This document shows, one piece after another, positions 24,500 through 34,445 of a stretch of 34,445 nucleotides of DNA; position 1 is the first letter of the stretch, and each line of letters opens with the position of its first letter. The position numbers and the translations under genes are program-made. The notes under the pieces are model-generated. The model searched no databases. It was not told the origin of the DNA and worked only from the letters and a program-made list of their open reading frames with translations. The stretch is taken from contig JAMCZK010000051.1 of NCBI GenBank assembly GCA_023485685.1, positions 1-34,445 of the forward strand, in the 5' to 3' direction. This DNA is from Chloroflexota bacterium (GTDB lineage: Bacteria; Chloroflexota; Anaerolineae; Anaerolineales; UBA11579).

Positions 24500-24521
24500 C
24501 ATAAACGGAGGTTTGTTTTCG

Positions 24522-25733
24522 ATGAGTAGCACATTCATGGCAGCAGAAAAACTATTGTTCACGTCTGAATCAGTGACGGAAGGACACCCGGACAAGATCT
24601 GCGACCAGGTGAGCGATGCGGTGTTGGATGCCTGCCTGGCGCAGGACAAGTATTCACGCGTGGCTTGCGAGACCGCGGTGAAAACGGGCTATGTGATGGT
24701 CCTGGGCGAGATCACCACCAAGGCTGTGTTGAATTTCGACCAACTGATCCGTTCGGTCATAAACGATATTGGTTACACAGACAGCGAGTACGGATTTGAT
24801 GGCAATTCATGCGGCGTGTTGGTTGCTCTTTCGCAACAGTCCGGTGACATCGCTCTGGGTGTGGATAAAGCCCTGGAAGCCAAATCCGGCGAGATGACTG
24901 ATAAGGAAATCGAGGCTGTCGGCGCCGGCGACCAGGGCATGATGTTCGGCTTTGCTTGCAATGAAACTGATACCTTGATGCCCATGCCCATCTATCTAGC
25001 GCATAAGTTAACCCGCAGCCTGGCGGAAAACCGCCGCAATGGCCGGCTGAAGTGGCTGCGCCCGGATGGCAAGAGCCAGGTAACCGTCGAATATTCGCAT
25101 GGCAAACCGAAGCGCGTGCACACCGTGCTGGTCAGCACCCAGCATGCTCCCGATATTTCCCACGCGGATATCGTTGAAGGCTTGATGGAAGAAGTGATCG
25201 GTCCCACGCTCCCCAAGGACTTGGTGGATAAAGATCTCAAGGTCTACGTGAATCCCACCGGCCGCTTTGTCATCGGCGGTCCCATGGGGGACGCCGGCGT
25301 TACCGGCCGCAAGATTATCGTCGACAGCTACGGCGGCATGGGCAGACACGGTGGCGGCGCCTTCAGCGGCAAAGATCCCACGAAGGTGGACCGTTCCGCG
25401 GCCTATGCGGCCCGTTGGGCGGCCAAGAACATCGTGGCTGCCGGGTTGGCAGATCGCTGCGAGATTCAGGTTGCTTATGCCATCGGCATGGCGAGGCCGA
25501 TGAGTGTGAACGTGGAAACATTTGGCACGGGTAAGATCCCCGATGAGCAGATCGCCAGAATTATTGACGAACATTTCGACCTGCGTCCGGGCGCTATTAT
25601 CCGCGACCTGGATCTGCGCCGCCCCATCTTCCGCCAAACTGCTGCCTACGGCCACTTCGGCCGCGACGACGTCAGCTTCCCCTGGGAGAACACCAGCAAA
25701 GCCAAAGACTTAGCGAAAGCTGCTGGACTATAA
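24522..25733 (+). CDS. metK: S-adenosylmethionine synthase
   Basis: Makes SAM from ATP and methionine. The 403-residue product has [17 protein letters not shown] with the catalytic His22 and metal Asp24, [10 protein letters not shown] (134-143), and the glycine-rich [19 protein letters not shown] loop. It ends with the [18 protein letters not shown] block. The ATG at 24522 has GGAGG 10 nt upstream; an in-frame TTG three codons earlier is less likely. Expression is controlled by the SAM-I riboswitch in its leader, a product-feedback loop. Confidence 0.97.
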
Positions 25734-25734
25734 C

Positions 25735-25810
25735 AAGAAAGAGCGCCGCACTAAGTGCGGCGCTTACTTTGTCCGTCGTTACGTGGAGCACTGAGGCGCT
25801 CTTTCTTTTT
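25735..25810 (+). terminator. Nested alternative hairpins after metK
   Basis: The inner stem is AGCGCCGCAC/GTGCGGCGCT (25742-25764), followed by TACTTT. The outer 13-bp inverted repeat is AAGAAAGAGCGCC (25735-25747) with GGCGCTCTTTCTT (25795-25807), ending in T's. The two share the same left-arm bases, so only one can form at a time. Either can end the metK transcript. Confidence 0.75.
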
Positions 25811-25811
25811 C

Positions 25812-26032
25812 CGTCATTGCGAGGAGGCGTTTTGCGTCGCCTTTAGCGACGCTGCCAGAGCCTGCCCTGACCCTGAGCGAAGCGAAGGGGAATGGGTGGC
25901 AATCTCGAAGAATTCGGTTCGCTCTGGAAACAGGCTTGTCGTACGTCCAATTTGATTAGCAAATGTAAATGCAGTTTCGAGATTGCTTCGTCCGCTTGCG
26001 ATGCAAGCATCGCAATGCTCCTCGCAAGGACG
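25812..26032. repeat. MITE-like palindromic intergenic repeat, copy B
   Basis: The ends are CGTCATTGCGAGGAG (25812-25826) and the complement of CGTCCTTGCGAGGAG (26018-26032), matching copy A at 46-321. The inside shares GCCTGCCCTGACCCTGA, GCGAAGGGG and GGCAATCTCGAA with copy A. The element is 221 bases against 276 in copy A, which has additional internal sequence. It sits between convergent metK and trxA and encodes nothing. Confidence 0.75.
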
Positions 26033-26039
26033 AATGAGT

Positions 26040-26372
26040 CTACGCCGTCTGTAGATGTGGCATCACCTTGCCGCTGATTCGCTCCTTCGGCTGGTATCCA
26101 ACCATGCGCTCGAGCATCTCGCCGTTTTTGAACAACATTGTTGTAGGCACGCTCATTACTTGGTAATCCATCGTGAGTTGGGTGGCCTCGTCCACATCCA
26201 ACTTGACCACCTTCACATCATCGGCCCATTCCTTAGCCAATTCCTCCAATACGGGCTCCAGAATAAGGCAAGGTTGGCACCATACCGCCCCGAATTCGAC
26301 CAGCACAGGCTTCTCGGATTTCAGTACTTCAGTTTCAAAACTCTCGCTAGTCACTTCCTGCAATTGACTCAT
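26040..26372 (-). CDS. trxA: Thioredoxin
   Basis: A 110-residue cytoplasmic thioredoxin. The active site reads AVWCQPC (Cys32-Cys35), a Gln in place of the usual Gly of WCGPC. VKLDVDEATQL, the cis-proline SVPTTMLFKNGE (Pro76) and MVGYQPKERI follow the canonical fold. The ATG at 26372 has GGAG 7 nt upstream; the longer frame to 26447 lacks support. It is a single gene between a palindromic repeat and tRNA-Lys. It may serve as general reductant, possibly with altered redox potential because of the CQPC site. Confidence 0.94.
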   Translation of the reverse strand: MSQLQEVTSESFETEVLKSEKPVLVEFGAVWCQPCLILEPVLEELAKEWADDVKVVKLDVDEATQLTMDYQVMSVPTTMLFKNGEMLERMVGYQPKERISGKVMPHLQTA

Positions 26373-26551
26373 CGGGCGACTCCGTTCATTGAGTGGGAAA
26401 TTCATCCTAGCAAGAGCAGAGAACGATGTCAAGCGGACAGATGTCATGGGGTCTTGAGGTCAAGAAGTCTAGAAGTTATGACGTCCGGACCTCTTGACTT
26501 CAAGGCCTTGGAACGCTTCCCCCCTTTCCCCATGATAAAATCTTGCTTCAC

Positions 26552-26623
26552 GGGCGCGTAGCTCAACGGCAGAGCAGTGGCCTTTTAAGCCATTGGTTGG
26601 AGGTTCGAATCCTCCCGCGCTCA
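26552..26623 (+). tRNA. tRNA-Lys (anticodon UUU)
   Basis: A 72-nt cloverleaf. Acceptor arms GGGCGCG/CGCGCTC have one G-U pair. The D stem is GCTC/GAGC and the anticodon stem GTGGC/GCCAT, with loop CTTTTAA giving anticodon TTT. The T stem is GGAGG/CCTCC with loop TTCGAAT, and the discriminator is A. CCA is not encoded. TAAAAT at 26536-26541 may be its -10 box. Its 3' end is the attachment site of the islands that follow: the last 35 nt recur at 30790-30824 and 32646-32680. Confidence 0.96.
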
Positions 26624-26700
26624 CTGAAAATTACCCGTAATTCTGACCGTTCTGCACTGAATTGAAGTTGATTTTCAAAATCGGGAGTAACGCGGGGTAA

Positions 26701-27130
26701 TTATTTTCCTGAAAGTAATTCTTCCAAAACTTCTGCGGCATGAACTTGCATAGAAGGTATCAGATGGCCGTGCATATCAAAGTAATACTCGGCTTGGCAT
26801 CCCCCAGTCTGTGAGATGCTATCAGCACATCAACACCTAGCGAAGCAGTCGTGTGTCGTAAGTCGTGAAAACGGATCGGCGGCACTTCAGCCAGTCGCAA
26901 GAGTTTCCTAAACGCCTTGGTCAAGTTGGTTGGGTCCATCGGAGTACCAACAGCGGAAGGGAAAACGAAATTCAAATCCTGCCAAAGCCCTTCGGCCTTC
27001 TCAGCATCAAAGCCATTCCGGATTTTTTTGCAACTGAGCGAATAGTCGCTGCGCAAGTTGATTTCGGAGACTTGGTTGTTACTCTGTACCTCGCAGGAAT
27101 AGGCCTGGCCGTAAGCAGTAATGTGAATTG
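26701..27130 (-). pseudogene. Tyrosine recombinase (integrase) remnant
   Basis: The main open part (27056-26760) matches the C-terminal catalytic domain of phage-type integrases. It has DLNFVFPSAVGTPMDPTNL, KAFRKLLRLAEVPPIRFHDLRHTTASL with the HxLRH arginine, then SHRLGDAKPSITL. A one-base deletion near 26779 breaks the frame. The shifted frame continues DMHGHLIPSMQVHAAEVLEELLSGK to a stop at 26701. In this tail the expected catalytic Tyr of the D-I-Y-G-H type motif reads His. Upstream to about 27130 only frame-broken traces remain (TTKSPKS), and the N-terminal domains are missing. It is adjacent to tRNA-Lys, its likely target. Confidence 0.85.
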
Positions 27131-27262
27131 ATCACCGTATTGCAGATCTTGCCCACACCCTTGAGGTGTGCCACAAAGAGGGTATCCTGCCCGGCCTTCT
27201 AGCTCACACCGCTCCGTGAGGCTTTAGCGGCGAATCATCAACTTCAATCTGCCTTTAATCAG
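27131..27262. other. No gene seen
   Basis: This gap between the integrase remnant and the next gene shows only a small hairpin of CACACC and GGTGTG arms near 27150-27170 and no coding pattern. It is probably decayed island sequence. Confidence 0.4.
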
Positions 27263-27589
27263 TTAGGGCGCGTTACAAATAGGGGCTGGAACCCAACTGG
27301 GGCATGGCATCCCTGGCCCCGTTAGGTCCACTCCATCATCAGAGGAATCAACCGGCGCACTCGTGGGAGTGTCACTTGGGGCAAGTGTGGGGGTCTCGGT
27401 TGGCATTCTGGTAGCAGTTTGGGTCGGAGTGAGGGTTGAGGTAGGGGTTGAAGTGGGGGTTGAAGTAGGGGTTGATGTCGCGGTCGAGGTCGGGGTTAAA
27501 GTCGGGGGTGTTAGTATTGGTGCTACCACCTTGTACGTCCCAAAAATAACCAGCAACACTATAGCTACCGCTATTACATATTTTGTCAT
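27263..27589 (-). CDS. Signal-anchored protein with a Thr-Pro-rich linker
   Basis: A 108-residue protein. The N-terminal hydrophobic helix (about 4-27) is an anchor or uncleaved signal. Residues 28-78 are a low-complexity linker built on TPTSTPTS-type units, encoded by a degenerate GGGGTTGAAGTA-type minisatellite on the plus strand. The short C-terminal part has two cysteines (PCPSWVPAPIC). Such linkers are common in cell-surface proteins of Anaerolineae. AGGA directly precedes the ATG, a weak ribosome-binding site. The function is unknown, and it may be a truncated surface protein that lost its folded domain. Confidence 0.5.
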   Translation of the reverse strand: MTKYVIAVAIVLLVIFGTYKVVAPILTPPTLTPTSTATSTPTSTPTSTPTSTLTPTQTATRMPTETPTLAPSDTPTSAPVDSSDDGVDLTGPGMPCPSWVPAPICNAP

Positions 27590-27739
27590 TCCTCGCTCGC
27601 TTTCTTATTGACTTGCTAGTGTAAACTATTTTCTGTAAATTTTTAGAAAGTAGGTCAGGTATCCCTTCGGCTTCGCAGGGAGGCTCTTTCAGAAGGTCTA
27701 GAAGCCAATGAAAGGAAAGACCATGACCCACCTTGACGA

Positions 27740-27960
27740 TTGTACTTTATCGAAAGAGTTCTCGAGCCGTTGGGCAATGCAGGCTTGGAGGGACCGCCAG
27801 AGATGATCCGCATCCTGGTTAACCAAGCTATGCAATTGGAACGACAGCAACATCTCCATGTGGCGCCCTTTGTACGCAACCCGGAGCGGCATGGCCGAGC
27901 GAATGGCTATAAACGCCAGAGGTCGAGAGGCGAGTGGGCGAAATCACCTTCGACCTTGGT
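27740..27960 (+). pseudogene. IS256-family transposase N-terminal remnant
   Basis: The frame gives PPEMIRILVNQAMQLERQQH, then VAPFVRNPERHGRANGYK, which matches the N-terminal part of IS256/Mutator transposases (ERxxxLGxxPYERxxERxGxANGYK pattern). After GYK the frame is broken: GEITFD, expected next, is found in another frame a few codons later. The sequence then ends at a 12-bp inverted repeat at 27961-27991. The DDE catalytic domain is missing. Confidence 0.72.
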
Positions 27961-27991
27961 ACAGTACAATTGTCCTGGGCAATTGTACTGT
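27961..27991. repeat. 12-bp perfect palindromic repeat
   Basis: ACAGTACAATTG and CAATTGTACTGT around TCCTGGG. It lies exactly where homology to the IS256 transposase stops, so it may mark an inserted small palindromic element or a deletion joint. No T-run follows. Confidence 0.6.
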
Positions 27992-28288
27992 TAAAAGACA
28001 GGGCAAATGACCCTTGTGGTGTCGAAAACCTGAGTAGATGATTGCTTACTGAAATGAAAGGGGCTAAGTGGGTGCGAAGCAAGAAAAGGAGCAATTCGAT
28101 AACCCCTTGCGTACTTATAAAAAATTGGTCAAAGTTGACTGTATTTGCTAAATTGAAGCTGTTTATTAAGACTATTTGGTATGCAGGACTGAATAACAAC
28201 CTGAGCGCAGCGGATAGGAGTTCGCCAATCTACCCCCGAAAAAGGGGAGAATTTTACAAGATTGTGTGACCCCTCGAATCCGGTTTGG
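27992..28288. other. No supported gene
   Basis: These 297 bases are AT-rich. A 75-codon frame at 28042-28269 starts at TTG without a ribosome-binding site, and I see no family pattern in it. The region probably contains decayed element sequence and the 3' flank of the HTH gene. Confidence 0.4.
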
Positions 28289-28609
28289 TTACCTCCTTTT
28301 TAAATTGGCTTCCATGGTTGCTAGCAGATTCTGCTTCTGCTTATCTGTTAGTTTGTCCCAGTTTTTGACAATGAATAGAAGTGTAGAATCTAGGTCCCTC
28401 CCCATTAGTTCGTAAACTTCAGTTCCTAGCTTAACCGCCATTTTCGCAATATTTTCATCATCTGGCAACCGTCTGCCATTGATATATTGACTCAACGACA
28501 CACGCGAGATTTGCAAGAAATCGGCAAATTCCCCTAGGGTGGTTCTCCTTCGTTGAGTGGCTTGCCACATTAAAAACTGTGTCTCAAGCCATTGTGAAAA
28601 TTTTGACAT
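28289..28609 (-). CDS. Soluble XRE-type HTH regulator
   Basis: A 106-residue cytoplasmic DNA-binding protein. Residues 23-70 form an XRE-like domain: TTLGEFADFLQISRVSLSQY, then INGRRLPDDENIAKMAVKLG and EVYELMG. A helical C-terminus follows (about 74-106). Its first 69 residues match the N-terminus of the HTH-membrane-pentapeptide protein at 29300 at roughly half of positions, including MS.FS.WLE at the start and ISRVSLSQY. The two are therefore paralogues. It is divergent from the secreted-protein gene, with an inverted repeat over that gene's promoter as a possible operator. No clear ribosome-binding site precedes its ATG. Confidence 0.85.
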   Translation of the reverse strand: MSKFSQWLETQFLMWQATQRRRTTLGEFADFLQISRVSLSQYINGRRLPDDENIAKMAVKLGTEVYELMGRDLDSTLLFIVKNWDKLTDKQKQNLLATMEANLKRR

Positions 28610-28670
28610 TCTTCTATGCTACCAGATTGTGAAATAATACAGGTGTTCTAGCTGTTAAATTTATTAACGA

Positions 28671-28699
28671 TTGACTTAATTTGTAATTAATGTTACAAA
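28671..28699 (+). promoter_or_regulatory. Promoter with overlapping operator before the secreted-protein gene
   Basis: TTGACT (28671-28676), a 17-nt spacer, then TACAAA (28694-28699). A perfect inverted repeat, TTTGTAA-N6-TTACAAA (28680-28699), covers the spacer and the -10 box, where a repressor would block polymerase. The two neighbouring HTH proteins are the obvious candidates. Confidence 0.5.
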
Positions 28700-28757
28700 C
28701 ATAAACGAAAGGGCGAATCAATCGGCTCGAACACCCAGTAGTAAGGAGGATTTTGCA

Positions 28758-29183
28758 ATGAGAAAAACAACTGTTTCTGTGGTGCTGGCCATCCTGATGT
28801 TGGTTGTCGGTTTTGGGGCCACACCCGCATATGCTGCAGGTGTACATTGCAGCAACGCTGACCTTTCCTTTAGCTACGATGCCACTACATTCAACGTATC
28901 ATGGGTAGGGAACTCAAGAGTTACCGGCGCCTGGCTGGTTGTCCCCAATGGTATCGCTGGCAGAAGTACGGCCCTTGGGATTCCATATTTCTTCATCCCA
29001 GTCAGCGGGGCTGGATCCAGGGCATTTCCTGGGGATGCCACACTTGTCCACAGTGGATCAGGTTCGACAGTCGATCTCCCTGAAGGCGGGTATACGCACT
29101 CCTACCTCCTGGTTCGCACAACCCAGGGCTTTTGCAAGACGCCACTACCCAACTTCTCAGTCGACTTTCTACCGAAGCAATAA
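28758..29183 (+). CDS. Small secreted protein of unknown function
   Basis: A 141-residue protein with a standard signal peptide (basic MRKTT, hydrophobic 6-20, cleavage likely after AYA at 26). The mature part of about 115 residues is mostly beta-like with aromatic and Gly/Ser-rich turns and has two cysteines (in VHCSNAD and GFCKTP), likely a disulfide. I do not recognise a family. AAGGAGG, 9 nt before the ATG, is a strong ribosome-binding site. It sits between two paralogous HTH genes and ends at a terminator, so it is an independent transcript and a likely target of one or both regulators. Confidence 0.8.
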   Translation: MRKTTVSVVLAILMLVVGFGATPAYAAGVHCSNADLSFSYDATTFNVSWVGNSRVTGAWLVVPNGIAGRSTALGIPYFFIPVSGAGSRAFPGDATLVHSGSGSTVDLPEGGYTHSYLLVRTTQGFCKTPLPNFSVDFLPKQ

Positions 29184-29222
29184 CGGGATTCTATTCAAAC
29201 TGTTTGAGCTGATTCAAGCCCA

Positions 29223-29261
29223 AAAAGGGAACGGAATGGTTATTGCCCACCGTTCCCTTTT
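29223..29261 (+). terminator. Terminator after the secreted-protein gene
   Basis: AAAAGGGAACGG and CCGTTCCCTTTT form a 12-bp stem with a 15-nt loop and a short T-run. It separates the secreted-protein gene from the HTH-pentapeptide gene. Confidence 0.75.
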
Positions 29262-29299
29262 GCTTTCTGGTGCGTGGACAGCACATCTTGGGACGAGTC

Positions 29300-30226
29300 A
29301 TGTCAAATTTCTCGCGCTGGCTTGAGGAAAAATACCTCAAGTGGCAAATGGAAACTGGGTCGCGGTCAACGCTTGCGGACTTTGCCAAGTTTCTCGGTAT
29401 TTCCCGGGTTTCCCTCAGCCAATACCTGCATGACACACGAACACCAAGTGATGCGCACTTGCTAAAGATTGCAATCCGGTTTGGAGAAGAAGTTTACGAA
29501 TCTGTTCAGCAAAGTAGGATTGTCCAACCCATTTCTATGGGAAATATGGCGCGCAAATACTTTTTGAGATATTGGCCATTTGTATTGACCGTAATCATAA
29601 CCTTAGCAGTATTCGAGGTGGGCCAATTACTTGCTTTATCAAATCAGAATAACAATCCGCAATCCTTCGAGCTCGAAACACCTTTGGCAAGTGAGATGGG
29701 TCAAAATCTCCCGGCAACCGCTGAAGCAGCACGTTTGCAGGCCCAGGTAACTGTGCAAGCCATTCAAAATTTGAAAAAAGGGGTATGTGATATTTTAGTT
29801 CCGGGTAGTAATCTGCGACTGTGTGATTTAAGTGGACGCGACCTTAGCAATATCGATCTTTCCGGTGCAAATCTTCAAGGTGCTATACTCGACAGTTCAA
29901 ATCTATCTGGGGCAAACCTCTCGGGGGCGGACCTAACCGGGGCTTCGATGGTCTCTTCAACATTGACGTCGGCAAATCTATCCGAAGCCAAAATGAGCGG
30001 GGCAAATCTTTCTGGGTCCAATTTTGCGTATGCAAATTTTATCAACGCAACCTTAACAGGCATAACAGCAAGGGGAGCTGACTTTACTTGGGTGAACTTT
30101 ACTGGAGCCACCCTTTTGGGGGCAGATCTTTCTGATAGCAATTTACTTAATGCAATTATGAATATTGAGCAGGCATCCGTCATATATTCGATGGAAAATA
30201 CTTTATTGCCAATGAATTTAAGATAA
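29300..30226 (+). CDS. HTH-transmembrane-pentapeptide-repeat fusion protein
   Basis: A 308-residue protein in three parts. Residues 1-70 are an XRE-like DNA-binding domain paralogous to the protein at 28289-28609 (STLADFAKFLGISRVSLSQY). About 92-113 is a single transmembrane helix (WPFVLTVIITLAVFEVGQLL). Residues 114-165 are a linker. Residues about 171-290 are a pentapeptide-repeat domain with A(N/D)LSG-type units (ANLSGADLTG, ANLSEAKMSG, ADLSDS), about 24 units or six coils of a right-handed beta-helix. A cytoplasmic HTH would put the repeats outside the membrane. By analogy with ToxR-like one-component regulators it could sense an external signal. The longer frame to 29243 lies in the upstream terminator and is rejected. 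Confidence 0.86.
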   Translation: MSNFSRWLEEKYLKWQMETGSRSTLADFAKFLGISRVSLSQYLHDTRTPSDAHLLKIAIRFGEEVYESVQQSRIVQPISMGNMARKYFLRYWPFVLTVIITLAVFEVGQLLALSNQNNNPQSFELETPLASEMGQNLPATAEAARLQAQVTVQAIQNLKKGVCDILVPGSNLRLCDLSGRDLSNIDLSGANLQGAILDSSNLSGANLSGADLTGASMVSSTLTSANLSEAKMSGANLSGSNFAYANFINATLTGITARGADFTWVNFTGATLLGADLSDSNLLNAIMNIEQASVIYSMENTLLPMNLR

Positions 30227-30382
30227 TAAACTCCTTGCCATGACCCTGGTAATCGCGGTTTTCTCCAATTGCGGGGCGGAAGACGCAAAATTTTACGCAG
30301 GGCGCCGTGAAAGATCAGTTAAATCTCCAGCCGACGCGGTGAGAGCGGCTGTTGCGAAATATTATCAGGAGAGGGAAGGGAA

Positions 30383-30589
30383 ATGAAGAAAACATACGCA
30401 CAAGTAAGAAGGGAATTAGCCGAGCTAGTGCAGGAACGCCGAAAGCTTTTGGATGGATCACTAAGCAAATCAAGCGGGCCATTGGGTGGAGGAACGCTAA
30501 AGCGAAACTCAATGATGAATGCCGAGAGGCGGAGACGAGTACGGGATTTAGAGAAAAGAATCAAAGGATTGAAGGCCAAGCTCACTTAA
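30383..30589 (+). CDS. Small basic coiled-coil protein of unknown function
   Basis: A 68-residue, strongly basic protein. Two charged helical stretches (YAQVRRELAELVQERRKLLDG and AERRRRVRDLEKRIKGLKAK) flank a Gly/Ser-rich turn, giving a likely helical hairpin. GGGAAGGGAA before the ATG provides a purine-rich ribosome-binding site. It is the last gene of island 1 before the attachment-site copy. No family is recognised, and it could be a nucleic-acid-binding or structural peptide. Confidence 0.5.
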   Translation: MKKTYAQVRRELAELVQERRKLLDGSLSKSSGPLGGGTLKRNSMMNAERRRRVRDLEKRIKGLKAKLT

Positions 30590-30783
30590 AATCTTACAAA
30601 ATTGGGACAAAACTGGTGCCGACTTAGATACCTTTCGAACTGCCTTCCTATCTCGATTTCGGGGCTAGTTCGGGAGTAATTAGCATATACACATTGGAAT
30701 TTGTAGACGCCTTTGACGCTTTTTTACGAGTAAATTCGGCATCCAAACGATGCCTGCCTGAAAAATGTGTTTCGGCTAATTTT
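30590..30783. other. No gene seen at the right end of island 1
   Basis: An AT-rich non-coding stretch leading to the attachment-site copy. No frame, tRNA or convincing hairpin was found. Confidence 0.4.
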
Positions 30784-30824
30784 TTTTAAGCCATTGGTTG
30801 GAGGTTCGAACCTTCCCGCGCTCA
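30784..30824 (+). repeat. tRNA-Lys 3'-end duplicate (attachment site 2)
   Basis: Matches the tRNA-Lys gene from the anticodon loop to the discriminator base (39 of 41 from TTTTAAG onward). The two differences are in the T-stem/loop boundary. The 5' half of the tRNA is absent, so this is not a tRNA gene. It marks the junction of island 1 with island 2. Confidence 0.92.
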
Positions 30825-30825
30825 T

Positions 30826-30857
30826 AAAAATTTCCTCGTAAATCGGGGAAATTTTTT
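30826..30857. terminator. Hairpin terminator at the end of the ArsA operon
   Basis: AAAAATTTCC and GGAAATTTTT around an 11-nt loop, with A/T tracts on both sides. It lies just downstream of arsA on the minus strand and directly beside attachment-site copy 2. Confidence 0.6.
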
Positions 30858-30892
30858 ATCTTGATAATTTTTCTGGGATTTGGGTTCAGTCT

Positions 30893-31819
30893 TCATCCGT
30901 AAAGCAACTTTCCAACCTTTCTCAAACTGGTCAGGTCCGAGACATCGTGATCAAGAAGGGGTAGGCGGGTTTGAAGTAGACTTGAGAAGCGATTGTCAAT
31001 CTCGTCCAGGTACGTTTTTTGCAGATCAGCTCTTGCTTGCAGGAAACGGTTGCCTTCGATCACTTCCGGCAGGATGGTTTGATTAACAAGTAATCCTTGC
31101 ACCGGAATTCCCAACTTAGCCAGTCCGGTTATGGCGCTTTGCGTTTCTTCTATTGGTAGCCTTTCGGGGAGGAGCACTAAGTTGAATACTGTTGCCGACT
31201 TGTTCTGCAGCACATTGAGGGCAGTGTCGTAACGCCTTTTGTCTTTTTCTAAATCCTGCATAGAGTTAGCGTTATCTCCGGTGTTTAGCAGTTCGGCCAG
31301 CTTTTTCCCTTCGACAATCTGTTTCTGCAGGAAACCTGCCCAGTCAAAAGGCATGGCTAGTTCTCGAAGAGACTTGCCGGTTGGGGCGGTGTCAAAAACT
31401 ACCACATCTCCATCCGGTTCTTCCAAGAAGGAGACAAACTGGTCAAAGGTTGCCATTTCTTCCATGCAGGGAGTGCTGACAACATCGTTGCCGAAAGTTC
31501 CGCTTATTTGCGACATGACTCCGGTAAGCCTTGTTAGGAAGACTCCTTTAGAGTCAGTTGGGTTGATGTTTAACCCGCAGAGGTTTTTGACTTCGTTGAT
31601 TGGAACCTTGGCATCTCCGCCTATATGTTGGGCAAAGATCGCAGACAAGCTGACTGTCGGGTCAGTGGAAACAATGGTTGTTTTATAACCGTGATCGGCA
31701 AACCAGACAGCGGTAGCGGTGGCCATCGTTGTTTTGCCGACTCCGCCTTTGCCCCCGAAAAAGAGGTATTTGGTATTTTTTTTATCAGGTAGCATGATGT
31801 TTAATAGGTCTTTATTCAT
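30893..31819 (-). CDS. ArsA/Get3-family ATPase
   Basis: A 308-residue single-domain ATPase of the ArsA group, which in other systems powers arsenite export or handles metalloids and tail-anchored proteins. The P-loop is FFGGKGGVGKTT (21-31). The A-loop region reads STDPTVSLSAIF, where the family usually has STDPAHSL. The switch II region reads FDTAPTGKSLRELAMP, where the family usually has DTAPTGHTLRLL. Cys81 and Cys118 (STPCMEEMATF) are candidate metalloid ligands. The ATG overlaps the upstream gene stop by eight bases. There is no arsB or acr3 permease here, so export in the classical sense is not supported. Confidence 0.88.
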   Translation of the reverse strand: MNKDLLNIMLPDKKNTKYLFFGGKGGVGKTTMATATAVWFADHGYKTTIVSTDPTVSLSAIFAQHIGGDAKVPINEVKNLCGLNINPTDSKGVFLTRLTGVMSQISGTFGNDVVSTPCMEEMATFDQFVSFLEEPDGDVVVFDTAPTGKSLRELAMPFDWAGFLQKQIVEGKKLAELLNTGDNANSMQDLEKDKRRYDTALNVLQNKSATVFNLVLLPERLPIEETQSAITGLAKLGIPVQGLLVNQTILPEVIEGNRFLQARADLQKTYLDEIDNRFSSLLQTRLPLLDHDVSDLTSLRKVGKLLYG

Positions 31820-32183
31820 TTTGGTTTTTCTCTTTAAACTGGCTCAGCGCTTCTTTCATTATCTCCAAGGTAGGAACGCCGTAGGAGACGATTTCGCCGT
31901 TGATCAGAACGGCTGGGGCAGCTATCTTTCCCTGATTAAACATCGCCATCAACTCTCCCATTACTTTCTTAGGGACGCCTCCCCCAAATATGGCAGTCGT
32001 AACAGGAACGATCTTCACTTCGGCTTCAATACCGGTTTCCGTAATCGCTTTTCCTACGATCTGTTCCGCTTGTTTGTCAAAACCAGCCAGGCTTGGAATG
32101 CAGCAAGCCGCGCTCAGGATGACAATGTTTGCCCCGGAGCGTTCGTGATTGACTGTTGACTCGAGGTCTTCGATGATTTTCAT
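31812..32183 (-). CDS. Thioredoxin-fold Cys-Cys protein (ArsD-like by context)
   Basis: A 123-residue protein. IVILSAACCIPSL places a vicinal pair Cys27-Cys28 at the end of the first strand. KIAAPAVLINGEIVSYG has a cis-proline (Pro90) and strand pattern like thioredoxin folds, and a helix ends the protein. The lone CC in place of CXXC, and the position before an ArsA gene, recall ArsD, the As(III) chaperone that loads ArsA. The sequence is not clearly ArsD, so I leave the symbol out. It overlaps the AbrB gene by ATGA and arsA by eight bases. Confidence 0.78.
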   Translation of the reverse strand: MKIIEDLESTVNHERSGANIVILSAACCIPSLAGFDKQAEQIVGKAITETGIEAEVKIVPVTTAIFGGGVPKKVMGELMAMFNQGKIAAPAVLINGEIVSYGVPTLEIMKEALSQFKEKNQNE

Positions 32184-32437
32184 GGCAATGTGGTTACTTG
32201 TTTATTCAAAGCCCCGAGAATACTTTTAACAGTCTCGTCCAATACTTCTGCTTTGATAAGGGCAATGTAGTCAACCTTCCCATTCTGTTCTCCTGTTACC
32301 ACTGCCAGTTTGTCTCCGGCCCTTATTTGTGCCTTTTCCCTTACGTCTTTTGGCAGCACCATCTGTCCCCGTTCGTCGATCGGGATAACCGCCGCCACCT
32401 TGCAGCAGCTGAGAATGTTCTTATTCCGTTTTGGCAT
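32180..32437 (-). CDS. AbrB/MazE-type regulator with an N-terminal Cys-Cys pair
   Basis: An 85-residue SpoVT/AbrB swapped-hairpin protein. VIPIDERGQMVLPKDVREKAQIRAGDKLAVV (18-47 region) is the DNA-binding fold. It is preceded by ILSCCKVAAV with Cys11-Cys12. The C-terminal helix contains ALIKAEVLDETVKSILG. I recall close patterns in AbrB-like proteins annotated as HgcAB-associated, but no hgcAB is present here. A regulator carrying vicinal cysteines, next to a Cys-Cys thioredoxin-fold protein and an ArsA ATPase, suggests metalloid or metal sensing. GGAGGT, 6 nt before the ATG, is strong. It is the first gene of the operon and probably represses its own promoter. Confidence 0.85.
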   Translation of the reverse strand: MPKRNKNILSCCKVAAVIPIDERGQMVLPKDVREKAQIRAGDKLAVVTGEQNGKVDYIALIKAEVLDETVKSILGALNKQVTTLP

Positions 32438-32465
32438 TTCATTACCTCCGGTTTTTCTGAATTAT

Positions 32466-32516
32466 CTGATTTATCAGAATATGCTGATATTATACAGACT
32501 CGAACAAAAATGTCAA
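32466..32516 (-). promoter_or_regulatory. Consensus promoter and operator array of the AbrB/ArsA operon
   Basis: On the minus strand: TTGACA (32516-32511), a 16-nt spacer, TATAAT (32494-32489), both exact consensus. Immediately downstream lie three alternating half-sites, read on the plus strand as CTGAT (32466-32470), ATCAG (32473-32477) and CTGAT (32484-32488). They cover the expected start of transcription. A promoter this strong needs a repressor; the AbrB-type product is the candidate. Confidence 0.82.
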
Positions 32517-32645
32517 GGTGGTCTTCACTAGGGTTTTTGGGTGCTAAGCCCACTTTGGAATATATGGGTAGTATGAACGACATTTAGGGGTAAATGTGGC
32601 CCCTCTAAGAAGATTCAGCTCTGAAAAATCCTTTTCCCCTAAGGT

Positions 32646-32680
32646 GCCATCGGTTGGAGGTTTGAATCCCCCCGCTCTTA
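32646..32680 (+). repeat. tRNA-Lys 3'-end duplicate (attachment site 3)
   Basis: A 35-base segment beginning GCCATCGGTTGGAGG that matches the last 35 nt of tRNA-Lys at 30 positions without gaps. No other part of the tRNA is present. It marks the outer end of island 2, about 90 bases before the core acyl-CoA synthetase gene. Confidence 0.8.
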
Positions 32681-32771
32681 TTTTCGATTAGATTGCCAGC
32701 CCCGTCTCCAACCAAGATTGGAATTGATAAGTTAGTTTTACCCCGGTGTATATGGCATCCCTACCTGTTTA

Positions 32772-34445
32772 TTACCCAACTCTCATTCGTGTATCGATGG
32801 CTACTGCCCCTTGTGTCGTCGCTCTGAGTGGATTGATTTCAATTTCCAGCAGTTGGGGATAATCGGAAGCTAATTGCCCCACCCGATATAGCACATCGAG
32901 CACCGCCTTCCTGTTAGCTGGGGGAATGTTACGGTACCCGTCCAACTTGCGTCCCGCCCAGGATTGTTTCAAGAGCGATTCAGCGTCATGTTCGGTCAGG
33001 GGGGTGAGAGAAAAAACGACATCATGCAGGCCTTCAACCTCTATACCGCCCGAGCCAAACATTAAAACAGCGCCGAATTGCGCATCTTGAACAGTCCCAA
33101 TGATCACTTCTTGACCAGGGGCAGCCATTTGCTGGACATGAACACCCTGGATCTGAGCATCCGGTTGGACACTGGCGCAGTTTTGAAGGATGGTGTCGAA
33201 TCCTTGTATAACATCTTGCGCGGTTGCCACATTCAATAAGACGCCGCCTACATCCGACTTATGCACAAGCTCTGTTGAGGCTACTTTGAGCACAACTGGG
33301 AACCCCACATCTTCCGCAAGTGCCACCGCCTCTTTTGCCGTTGTGGCTAACCCCATTTTTAGAAGCGGAATGCCATAGGCAGATAAGATTTGATGGACAA
33401 TATCGGTGGGCAAAAAGCCTGATTTTTGTTTTTGTAAGATTGAGGCGACAAGTTCTTTTTGAATTCCGTCTATCGAAACTACTTGGGATTTAGCTTGTGC
33501 CAGATATTCAGCCCGTTGTGCCAAGATAGCCAGAGCCGAGGCAGCTCTTTCCGGAAAACGATATTCGGGAATGCGGGCGGCGCGGAAGAATTCGACCGCT
33601 TCCTGGACCATCCGTTCGCCCATAAGGGCCACAACCACTGGCTTCCTGGCCAAGTTGATGATGGGAATCAATGCTCTGGCAACGCTTCCCGCAGAGTGCA
33701 CCGGAGGAGGAGGCAAGATCACCAGACAACTATCCACATGGGGGTCATTGAGCAAGGCGCCTAAGCAGCTTGCATACTGCTCTGGGGACGCGCCAGCCAG
33801 CATATCGATTGGGTTTTTGATACTGGCTGCAGGAGGCAATAGGTTCCGCAAATTCGTTTGGGTTGCGTCGGATAATTGCGCTAGATGAAGGCCATTTGCC
33901 TCTATGGCGTCTGCGGCGGTCACACCGGGGCCGCCCGCATTGGTTAACACGGCTACACCACGTCCGGGTGATGGAGGACACCACGCCAGAGCTCTGGCCC
34001 AATCAAAGAGCTCTTCACTTGTTTCAGCGCGGATGACGCCTGCTCTTTGGAAAGCGGCGTTGTAGGCAGATTCTTTTCCTGCTAAAGCACCGGTGTGCGA
34101 GGAGACCGCTTGTTGGCCGCTTTCGAAACGGCCGACCTTGAGGGCGACGATGGGTTTGTTGCGCGTCACGCGTTGGGCAGCTTCCACGAAACGGCGTCCA
34201 TCACTTACGCCTTCCAGGTAAAGTGTAATGACGTGGGTGTGGGCATCTTCAGCTACCGGTTCCAACACATCACATTCGCTGACATCCGCCTGATTGCCTA
34301 AGCTGACGAGGCGGGATAAGCCAAAACCCTGCCCTCTGGCCCAATCGATAACTGCTGCACAGATAGCGCCTGAATGGGAAATAAAAGCCACATCGCCGGG
34401 GGTAGGTCCTGGGGGCGACAAGAAGGTGGCGTCTAGCGGTAAATG
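32772..34445 (-). CDS. ADP-forming acyl-CoA synthetase (acetate-CoA ligase type), 5' end outside the window
   Basis: Converts acyl-CoA, ADP and phosphate to acid, CoA and ATP (or the reverse); in fermenters it conserves energy from acetyl-CoA. At least 557 residues are visible, and the frame is open to the window end, so the N-terminal CoA-binding part is cut off. Present are DVAFISHSGAICAAVIDWA, the phospho-His segment SSHTGALAGKESAYNAAF, and NAGGPGVTAADAIE of the succinyl-CoA-ligase-like domains. The ATP-grasp domain follows (GFPVVLKVASTELVHKSDVGG, VHVQQMA, LMFGSGGIEVE, LEIEINPL). It is the fused alpha-beta type, and core sequence resumes here after the islands. Confidence 0.92.
   Translation of the reverse strand, partial: HLPLDATFLSPPGPTPGDVAFISHSGAICAAVIDWARGQGFGLSRLVSLGNQADVSECDVLEPVAEDAHTHVITLYLEGVSDGRRFVEAAQRVTRNKPIVALKVGRFESGQQAVSSHTGALAGKESAYNAAFQRAGVIRAETSEELFDWARALAWCPPSPGRGVAVLTNAGGPGVTAADAIEANGLHLAQLSDATQTNLRNLLPPAASIKNPIDMLAGASPEQYASCLGALLNDPHVDSCLVILPPPPVHSAGSVARALIPIINLARKPVVVALMGERMVQEAVEFFRAARIPEYRFPERAASALAILAQRAEYLAQAKSQVVSIDGIQKELVASILQKQKSGFLPTDIVHQILSAYGIPLLKMGLATTAKEAVALAEDVGFPVVLKVASTELVHKSDVGGVLLNVATAQDVIQGFDTILQNCASVQPDAQIQGVHVQQMAAPGQEVIIGTVQDAQFGAVLMFGSGGIEVEGLHDVVFSLTPLTEHDAESLLKQSWAGRKLDGYRNIPPANRKAVLDVLYRVGQLASDYPQLLEIEINPLRATTQGAVAIDTRMRVG

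What the first reader, a model, noticed from the sequence alone, without database searches (positions are those of the whole stretch)
26552..32680. Two tandem genomic islands stacked on one tRNA-Lys gene
The last 35 nt of tRNA-Lys(UUU) recur twice in direct orientation, at 30790-30824 (33/35) and 32646-32680 (30/35). This divides 26.6-32.7 kb into two segments, with an integrase remnant beside the intact tRNA. Established knowledge: tyrosine integrases use tRNA 3' ends and rebuild the gene, and repeated use makes tandem arrays. The divergence order implies the outer segment (AbrB/ArsA operon) came first.
Basis: partly seen in the sequence, partly recalled or inferred. Interest (0 to 1): 0.8.

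Follow-up and report, generated by a model that had tools for sequence, protein, structure and literature searches.

The report
Two decayed tandem islands beside tRNA-Lys
Next to one tRNA-lysine gene of an uncultured Anaerolineales bacterium lie what look like the remains of two mobile DNA segments that landed at the same spot, a known way for bacteria to pick up genes, here with the landing enzyme now broken.

Summary
The last 35 nt of tRNA-Lys(TTT) recur downstream in direct orientation at 33/35 and 30/35; other places in the window reach 20/35, and 200 shuffles at most 24. Best reading: two stacked, decayed tRNA-targeted islands in an Anaerolineales genome.

Main support: metK-trx-tRNA-Lys is syntenic in 9 of 9 same-genus loci read, and none of 11 downstream window genes is there. 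GC drops from 54.4% to 46-47% between the repeats. The broken integrase beside the tRNA has a 70% identical relative 82 bp after tRNA-Lys in G014. In 21 of 30 fetched loci, G014 included, this integrase family points at a tRNA 3' end 86-199 bp away. G016, same family, has tRNA-Lys(CTT) with two exact copies downstream and such integrases.

Limits: no empty site was found, the right flank is also foreign to the genus, and the contig ends 1.8 kb after copy 3. Segment 2 has no integrase. The divergence order (2 versus 5 differences) is not significant (p=0.43).

New member of a known kind. Segment 2 carries an HgcC-type AbrB; no hgcA was found.

The parts
24513..25733 (+). metK, left chromosomal anchor
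   Evidence: with trx and tRNA-Lys in 9 of 9 same-genus loci read
26040..26375 (-). thioredoxin, left chromosomal anchor
   Evidence: with metK and tRNA-Lys in 9 of 9 same-genus loci read
26552..26624 (+). intact tRNA-Lys(TTT); its 3' part (about 26583-26623) is the rebuilt target site
   Evidence: ARAGORN; Rfam RF00005 73.3 bits; G005 has the same 72 nt, with no copy in the 5.5 kb readable downstream
26701..27056 (-). tyrosine integrase remnant, C-terminus facing the tRNA, stop 76 bp after it; no N-terminal part recognised, frame broken near the end, the Tyr position of the relative reads His and its LGH reads LGD
   Evidence: PF00589; frames; 70% over 54 aa to the integrase fragment at G014 tRNA-Lys, 61% over 69 aa to one in G078
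26625..30789 (.). segment 1 (inner island), GC 46.8%
   Evidence: bounded by tRNA-Lys and copy 2; GC; none of its genes at tRNA-Lys in 9 loci
27263..27589 (-). short low-complexity ORF (cargo or chance)
   Evidence: ORF list; PT repeat below cut-off
28289..28609 (-). HTH (HTH_3) protein, cargo
   Evidence: PF01381 34.8 bits; relatives of 44-49% elsewhere in five same-genus genomes
28758..29183 (+). 141-aa protein with a signal-peptide-like start (my reading), cargo, no family over a cut-off
29300..30226 (+). HTH - membrane stretch (my reading) - pentapeptide-repeat protein, paralogue of the 28289 HTH gene
   Evidence: PF00805 123.3 bits and PF01381 28.0 bits; 52% over 69 aa
30784..30824 (+). 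copy 2 of the tRNA-Lys 3' end (att-like boundary between segments)
   Evidence: 33/35 over 30790-30824 plus 6 matching bases to the left
30825..32645 (.). segment 2 (outer island or cis-mobilizable remnant), GC 46.1%, no integrase seen
30893..31819 (-). ArsA/GET3-type ATPase, single domain
   Evidence: PF02374 224.9 bits; TIGR00345 203.8 bits, cut-off 135
31812..32183 (-). thioredoxin-fold protein with Cys-Cys motif
   Evidence: PF13192 25.6 bits, cut-off 24.8; ArsE family only below its cut-off
32180..32437 (-). AbrB-type regulator of the HgcC family
   Evidence: NF040962 94.4 bits, cut-off 70; 1 of 101 genomes over cut-off, this one
32646..32680 (+). copy 3 of the tRNA-Lys 3' end (outer att-like boundary)
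   Evidence: 30/35
32772..34421 (-). NDP-forming acyl-CoA synthetase-like gene, cut by the contig end; right flank
   Evidence: under the equivalog cut-offs, gene incomplete; not at tRNA-Lys in 9 loci

Best explanation
tRNA-Lys(TTT) of this Anaerolineales genome has served at least twice as landing site for integrative elements that use a tyrosine integrase of a family found at tRNA 3' ends. Each element carried a copy of the tRNA 3' part, from about the anticodon loop to the end. Integration joined this copy to the tRNA 5' half, so the gene stayed intact, and pushed the old 3' part away as a direct repeat. Copy 3 marks the far end of the outer segment (AbrB, Cys-Cys thioredoxin, ArsA). Copy 2 marks the junction between the outer and the inner segment. 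The inner segment's integrase next to the tRNA has since decayed, and segment 2 has none, so the array is now fixed unless an integrase acts in trans. Shown: repeats, synteny break, composition, integrase family and its placement, the same architecture with exact copies elsewhere in the family. Inferred: two separate events, their order, the loss of mobility.
For: Repeats far above chance, direct, 3' and downstream. Left anchor syntenic in 9 of 9 same-genus loci read (tenth genome, G009, not read there); 11 downstream window genes sought there, none found at E<=1e-3 in 5.5-18.1 kb; no second copy over 22/37. GC 46.8% and 46.1% in the two segments; 224 windows of 4.2 kb left of the tRNA range 52.4-56.3%, 248 of 1.8 kb range 50.5-58.5%; right flank 53.0%. 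ArsA: 23 other genomes of the family have only four weak matches; of 100 other relatives only G052 (72%) is close, the rest 54% or less and mostly partial or under 40%; of 400 genomes drawn from the phylum only this one and G213 (74-76%) pass 1e-60. Integrase: 70% to the fragment 82 bp after tRNA-Lys(TTT) in G014, same orientation; 21 of 30 fetched loci of the family (20 of 29 without the query's own) have the C-terminus convergent on a tRNA 3' end within 86-199 bp. G016: tRNA-Lys(CTT) with 36/36 copies 6.0 and 18.3 kb downstream and integrases of the family after the tRNA and after each copy; G007 (same genus): tRNA-Leu with a 36/36 copy 3.7 kb away. G016 also has phage genes after its tRNA-Lys(TTT) and, on another contig, phage genes and an integrase just before a 45-nt copy of that tRNA whose left end lies within 2 bases of copy 2's.
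Against: No genome was found with tRNA-Lys joined to the sequence after copy 2 or 3. The acyl-CoA synthetase gene right of copy 3 is itself absent from that place in the genus, so the outer end may not be the true end. Segment 2 (1.8 kb) has no integrase and is below the 2 kb limit of the Islander method. The integrase match is a remnant just over the Pfam cut-off. GC of the first kilobase after the tRNA (50.5%) is near the host range. Of 8 integrase sites read at length, 6 showed no tRNA copy of 27/36 or better in the range read (at G011 only 0.5 kb was readable). Of the 30 integrase loci, 9 do not fit the placement (5 without a tRNA in the held flank, 3 arranged otherwise, 1 at 497 bp). Three of the four tRNA-Leu loci are from one genus, so the 21 are not independent.
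Confidence: 0.85

Rival explanations
1. The array is longer than two: copy 3 is an internal boundary, and the acyl-CoA synthetase DNA beyond it is part of a third imported segment whose end lies past the contig end.
For: The acyl-CoA synthetase gene is not at this place in 9 same-genus loci. In the genus the best matches are 42-43%, in 3 of 10 genomes; outside it six of 30 other genomes have 60-64% over the full query, and contig-edge fragments reach 67% (G013) and 82% (G028, 159 residues). Two core genes that follow tRNA-Lys in G005 were not found as close matches in this genome.
Against: GC right of copy 3 returns to host level (53.0%). The genome is 76% complete, so missing core genes prove little. 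Compatible with the best explanation rather than opposed to it.
Confidence: 0.35
2. Two islands, but the inner one arrived first, or both came as one composite: the later element entered at an internal att copy, or both moved together by accretion.
For: Integration into a resident element's att site and joint transfer of composite tandems are described (PMC5704250, passages). Differences 2/35 and 5/35 are not significantly different. The DNA right of the tRNA and right of copy 2 are weakly alike (14 of 22), as expected for related left ends.
Against: With rebuilding at the tRNA, the simplest geometry puts the newest element next to the tRNA, and copy 3 is the more diverged.
Confidence: 0.25
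3. One island only, with an extra internal tRNA fragment from another cause (two att copies in one element, or a deletion inside a larger island).
For: Only one integrase remnant; the two segments have nearly the same GC.
Against: In the G016 array each copy is followed by an integrase of its own; copy 2 has nearly the same left end as the G016 prophage copy.
Confidence: 0.1
4. The copies are remains of duplicated tRNA-Lys genes, not att sites.
For: Sequence similarity to the tRNA.
Against: Homology stops at the anticodon loop or stem in both copies; no 5' half; an integrase remnant sits where related ones sit.
Confidence: 0.02
5. The contig is chimeric: a metagenome assembly joined unrelated DNA at a repeated tRNA fragment.
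For: The genome is a draft of 56 contigs; the genes right of the tRNA are absent from the 9 same-genus loci.
Against: Two different, diverged copies would be poor points for a false join; the integrase remnant next to the tRNA matches the arrangement in G014.
Confidence: 0.04

Closest known systems
tRNA/tmRNA genomic islands as defined by Islander (PMC4383910, passages read)
   Same: intact tRNA, 3' fragments downstream in the same orientation, tyrosine integrase of a family found at tRNA ends, anticodon-loop type left end; tandem arrays are listed (125 of two or more members, 2168 genomes)
   Different: integrase of segment 1 is a pseudogene, segment 2 has none and is under 2 kb, fragments have 2 and 5 differences
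Tandem ssrA islands of Dehalococcoides (PMC3146451, passages read); same phylum by recall
   Same: several islands stacked downstream of one RNA gene, separated by direct repeats of its 3' end; 15 without integration module, called possible cis-mobilizable elements
   Different: there the target is ssrA and the recombinase a serine recombinase; cargo is reductive dehalogenase genes
CIME / accretion tandems (PMC5704250, passages read)
   Same: decayed element without integrase but with att-like ends next to another element at one site
   Different: no conjugation or mobilization genes seen here; excision untested
tRNA-Lys(CTT) array of G016, contig C26 (this work)
   Same: same bacterial family, same integrase family, tRNA 3' copies in tandem, repeat begins at the anticodon loop
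   Different: exact 36/36 copies and open integrase frames of 262-373 aa: young, where the window's array is old; a third integrase follows the second copy, with no further copy of 26/36 in the next 20 kb

Membership tests
tRNA-targeted genomic island | intact tRNA gene plus a displaced 3' fragment downstream in the same orientation | tested here: met
tRNA-targeted genomic island | tyrosine integrase gene between tRNA and fragment | tested here: inconclusive
   present only as a broken remnant in segment 1; none among the ORFs of segment 2
tRNA-targeted genomic island | absence of the segment, with tRNA joined to the right flank, in relatives (empty site) | tested here: inconclusive
   segment genes absent in 9 of 9 loci read, but those loci have a different right flank
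tRNA-targeted genomic island | integrase of a family that sits at tRNA 3' ends | tested here: met
   21 of 30 fetched loci, 20 of 29 without the query's own, convergent within 86-199 bp of a tRNA 3' end
tandem island array (Islander definition) | each member has its own tRNA fragment and its own integrase | tested here: not met
   each member has a fragment; only one has an integrase remnant
CIME (cis-mobilizable element), segment 2 | no integrase or transfer genes, att sites kept | tested here: inconclusive
   no such genes and two att-like ends; whether the ends still work is untested
HgcC family (AbrB gene of segment 2) | match to NF040962 over the curated cut-off | tested here: met
   94.4 bits against 70
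HgcC family (AbrB gene of segment 2) | encoded beside hgcA/hgcB | tested here: not met
   neighbours are the thioredoxin-like gene and arsA; no hgcA match in the genome (76% complete); hgcB was not sought

The most novel reading that the evidence does not exclude
Segment 2 is a small travelling metal(loid) or thiol-chemistry cassette in which an HgcC-type AbrB regulator, known from genes next to the mercury-methylation pair hgcAB, controls a Cys-Cys thioredoxin and an ArsA-type ATPase without hgcAB, so that the HgcC family would be a regulator exchanged among mobile metal modules rather than a part of mercury methylation alone.
Probability: 0.2. Interest if true: 0.5.

Novelty: new member of a known kind. 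Interest (0 to 1): 0.3.

Why it matters
It documents tRNA 3' ends as island landing sites in Anaerolineales, for which one search of the held library listed no such paper (the single paper listed is on Corynebacterium). One integrase family links the window, G014, G016 and other genomes of the order (101 of 400 searched) to a range of tRNA genes. It also gives a mobile context for an HgcC-type regulator and an ArsA pair. The mechanism itself is textbook.

Tried and rejected
Chance repeats: rejected. Copies from another tRNA: four other tRNAs of the genome compared, best 21/35. Decayed tRNA duplicates: no 5' halves. Core genes: none of 11 downstream genes in 9 same-genus loci. Defence cargo: seven proteins scanned, PADLOC gave only weak HTH and ATPase matches. 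RNA genes in 25700-34445: only the tRNA at gathering scores. IS256 remnant near 27740-27890: Pfam 12.5 bits, cut-off 21, and nothing in NCBIfam, so not claimed. hgcA in the genome: no match. ArsA on plasmids: 2124 records, all under 60% identity, so no close plasmid source. Integrase fragment in viral contigs: 45 loci, best long match 67%; tRNAs were looked for in 4 of these 45 and none was found. A thought that copy 2 keeps the old tRNA terminator was dropped, because the hairpin may equally end the arsA operon. Paper searches: on ArsA and thioredoxin, too broad a term, 29,370 papers, nothing useful; on hgcA/hgcC with AbrB, only PMC10349881 bears on it; two searches were seen as listings except for the papers named as read in passages. 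A text look-up did not find its string; its printed place is not used. A tRNA scan inside the script printed nothing and was replaced. Most loci (other phyla) were not used.
Full report
What was checked. The window is the whole contig C25 of a 1.71 Mb draft genome, 76% complete. Its same-genus relatives include named Anaerolineales MAGs: contig lengths of G001, G006 and G008 agree with those of TGS_CHL6, DTUCFX4 and ACE_CHL7. The tRNA-Lys(TTT) lies at 26552-26624. Its last 35 nt (26589-26623) recur at 30790-30824 (33/35) and 32646-32680 (30/35). A scan of both strands with the 35-mer one base further right finds the same two places at 32 and 29 and nothing else above 20; 200 shuffles gave at most 24. 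Both copies are direct, 3' and downstream, as integration into a tRNA 3' end requires.

Boundaries. Copy 2 matches the tRNA without a break from TTTTAA of the anticodon loop on, apart from two substitutions further in; copy 3 from the anticodon stem. In G016, a genome of the same family, a copy of 45 identical nt of its tRNA-Lys(TTT) begins two bases further left than copy 2 does, with an integrase frame of 316 aa ending just before it. Phage genes lie on that contig (replication initiation) and on the contig that carries the intact tRNA (terminase small subunit, holin). That both belong to one prophage is inferred, since they are on two contigs. Islander reports anticodon-centred sites for 2083 of its 3919 islands (PMC4383910).

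Synteny. Of ten same-genus genomes, nine gave a tRNA-Lys locus that I read, with 5.5-18.1 kb downstream; the tenth, G009, had only a weak match and was not read there. metK and the thioredoxin gene precede the tRNA in all nine; none of eleven window genes from 26.7 to 34.4 kb is there at E<=1e-3. Instead these loci share other genes, for example a lipoprotein family in eight of nine. Two such genes, taken from G005, matched the window's genome at no more than 35% identity. So the insertion point is a true break, but the right flank of the window is not the genus's right flank either, and no empty site could be shown. G005 carries the same tRNA sequence (72 nt) without copies in the 5.5 kb readable.

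Composition. GC is 54.4% left of the tRNA, 46.8% in segment 1, 46.1% in segment 2 and 53.0% right of copy 3. The first kilobase of segment 1 is 50.5%.

Integrase. The remnant at 26701-27056 (minus strand) ends 76 bp after the tRNA. No N-terminal part was recognised, the frame is broken near the end, and the positions of the relative's active-site Tyr and of its LGH histidine read His and Asp (motif roles recalled). Its closest relative among the loci compared is at G014's tRNA-Lys(TTT), 82 bp after the tRNA, in the same orientation, 70% identical over 54 residues; that contig ends inside the gene. G078 has a broken relative (61% over 69 residues) 2.9 kb after its tRNA-Lys. A search with the last 77 residues of the G014 gene hit 101 of 400 genomes of the order at E<=1e-8. 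Of 30 loci fetched, the query's own among them, 25 have a tRNA in the held flank; in 21 the integrase C-terminus points at the tRNA 3' end from 86-199 bp, one more from 497 bp, three are arranged otherwise, five have no tRNA. The targets of the 21 are Lys, Leu, Met, Asn, Val, Arg, Ala and His tRNAs. The window's remnant sits where such integrases sit.

Tandem arrays elsewhere. I read eight of these sites at greater length (ten stretches). Two show tRNA copies. G016 contig C26 has tRNA-Lys(CTT) and two 36/36 copies, 6.0 and 18.3 kb downstream, with integrases of the family 1.1 kb after the tRNA, 127 bp after the first copy and 708 bp after the second; no further copy follows in the next 20 kb at 26/36. 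G007, same genus, has tRNA-Leu with one 36/36 copy 3.7 kb away. The other six showed no copy of 27/36 in the range read, one of them with only 0.5 kb to read. The G016 array looks like a young version of what the window shows in decay.

Cargo. Segment 1: an HTH gene and a paralogue fused to a membrane stretch and pentapeptide repeats (52% over 69 residues), a 141-aa secreted-looking protein, small ORFs. Relatives of the HTH gene exist elsewhere in five same-genus genomes at 44-49%, so this cargo is not foreign to the genus as a family. Segment 2: AbrB, Cys-Cys thioredoxin-fold protein and ArsA-type ATPase, in one row on the minus strand. The AbrB gene is over the cut-off of NF040962, HgcC; of 101 genomes it is the only one over the cut-off. 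PMC10349881 (passages) reports an abrB/prlF-like gene directly upstream of hgcA in 14 hgcAB contigs, and ars genes including arsA on four hgcAB contigs; that its gene is the HgcC family is my inference. The window's genome has no hgcA match. The thioredoxin-like gene and arsA also occur together in G052 and twice in G213, there after a MarR-type gene and before methyltransferase genes, with no tRNA in the 8.7-18.9 kb read (the MarR name is my reading of the sequence). In the window arsA is the last gene, and copy 2 ends 68 bp beyond its stop.

Mechanism and order. The data fit repeated integration into the tRNA 3' end with rebuilding of the gene (as described for tyrosine integrases, PMC4383910). 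If each newcomer lands at the rebuilt tRNA, the outer segment is older. The copies agree in direction (2 and 5 differences from the tRNA), but the difference is not significant (p=0.43), and landing at an internal att copy or joint movement is also described (PMC5704250).

Verdict. The closest precedent in the phylum that I know (phylum recalled) is the Dehalococcoides ssrA arrays (PMC3146451, passages), which use a serine recombinase. No paper on tRNA islands in Anaerolineae was found with the one search made.

Noticed in passing
window 32180-32437: AbrB ORF is an HgcC-family regulator (NF040962, 94.4 bits) with no hgcA match in the genome; the only one over the cut-off among 101 genomes searched.
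   Followed up: partly
L107 (G052:C102), L201 and L202 (G213:C53, C96): Shared gene order MarR-like, Cys-Cys thioredoxin-fold, ArsA-type ATPase, methyltransferase; arsA 71-75% identical to the window's.
   Followed up: partly
L280 (G016:C26:1308-1381, 7395, 19707): Tandem array at tRNA-Lys(CTT) with two 36/36 copies and integrases of the same family.
   Followed up: yes
L130 and L121 (G016:C21, C22): Phage genes after tRNA-Lys(TTT) and, on another contig, phage genes and an integrase next to a 45-nt tRNA copy; probably one prophage.
   Followed up: partly
L128 (G000:C43:8336-8366): Orphan tRNA 3'-end-like fragment in the window's own genome; no second place for its 21-base core within one mismatch in the genome held, so perhaps another displaced att site.
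   Followed up: partly
L122, L123, L124 (G078:C56, C93, C21): Three short copies of the tRNA-Lys anticodon arm, two of them preceded by a shared sequence; they look like att sites of several elements.
   Followed up: no
window 26431-26508: Stretch upstream of the tRNA resembles G000:C31:2544-2627 (74%), a possible dispersed repeat.
   Followed up: no
window 28289-28609 and 29300-29506: Neighbouring paralogous HTH domains, one fused to a membrane stretch and pentapeptide repeats; similar HTH genes occur elsewhere in the genus.
   Followed up: partly
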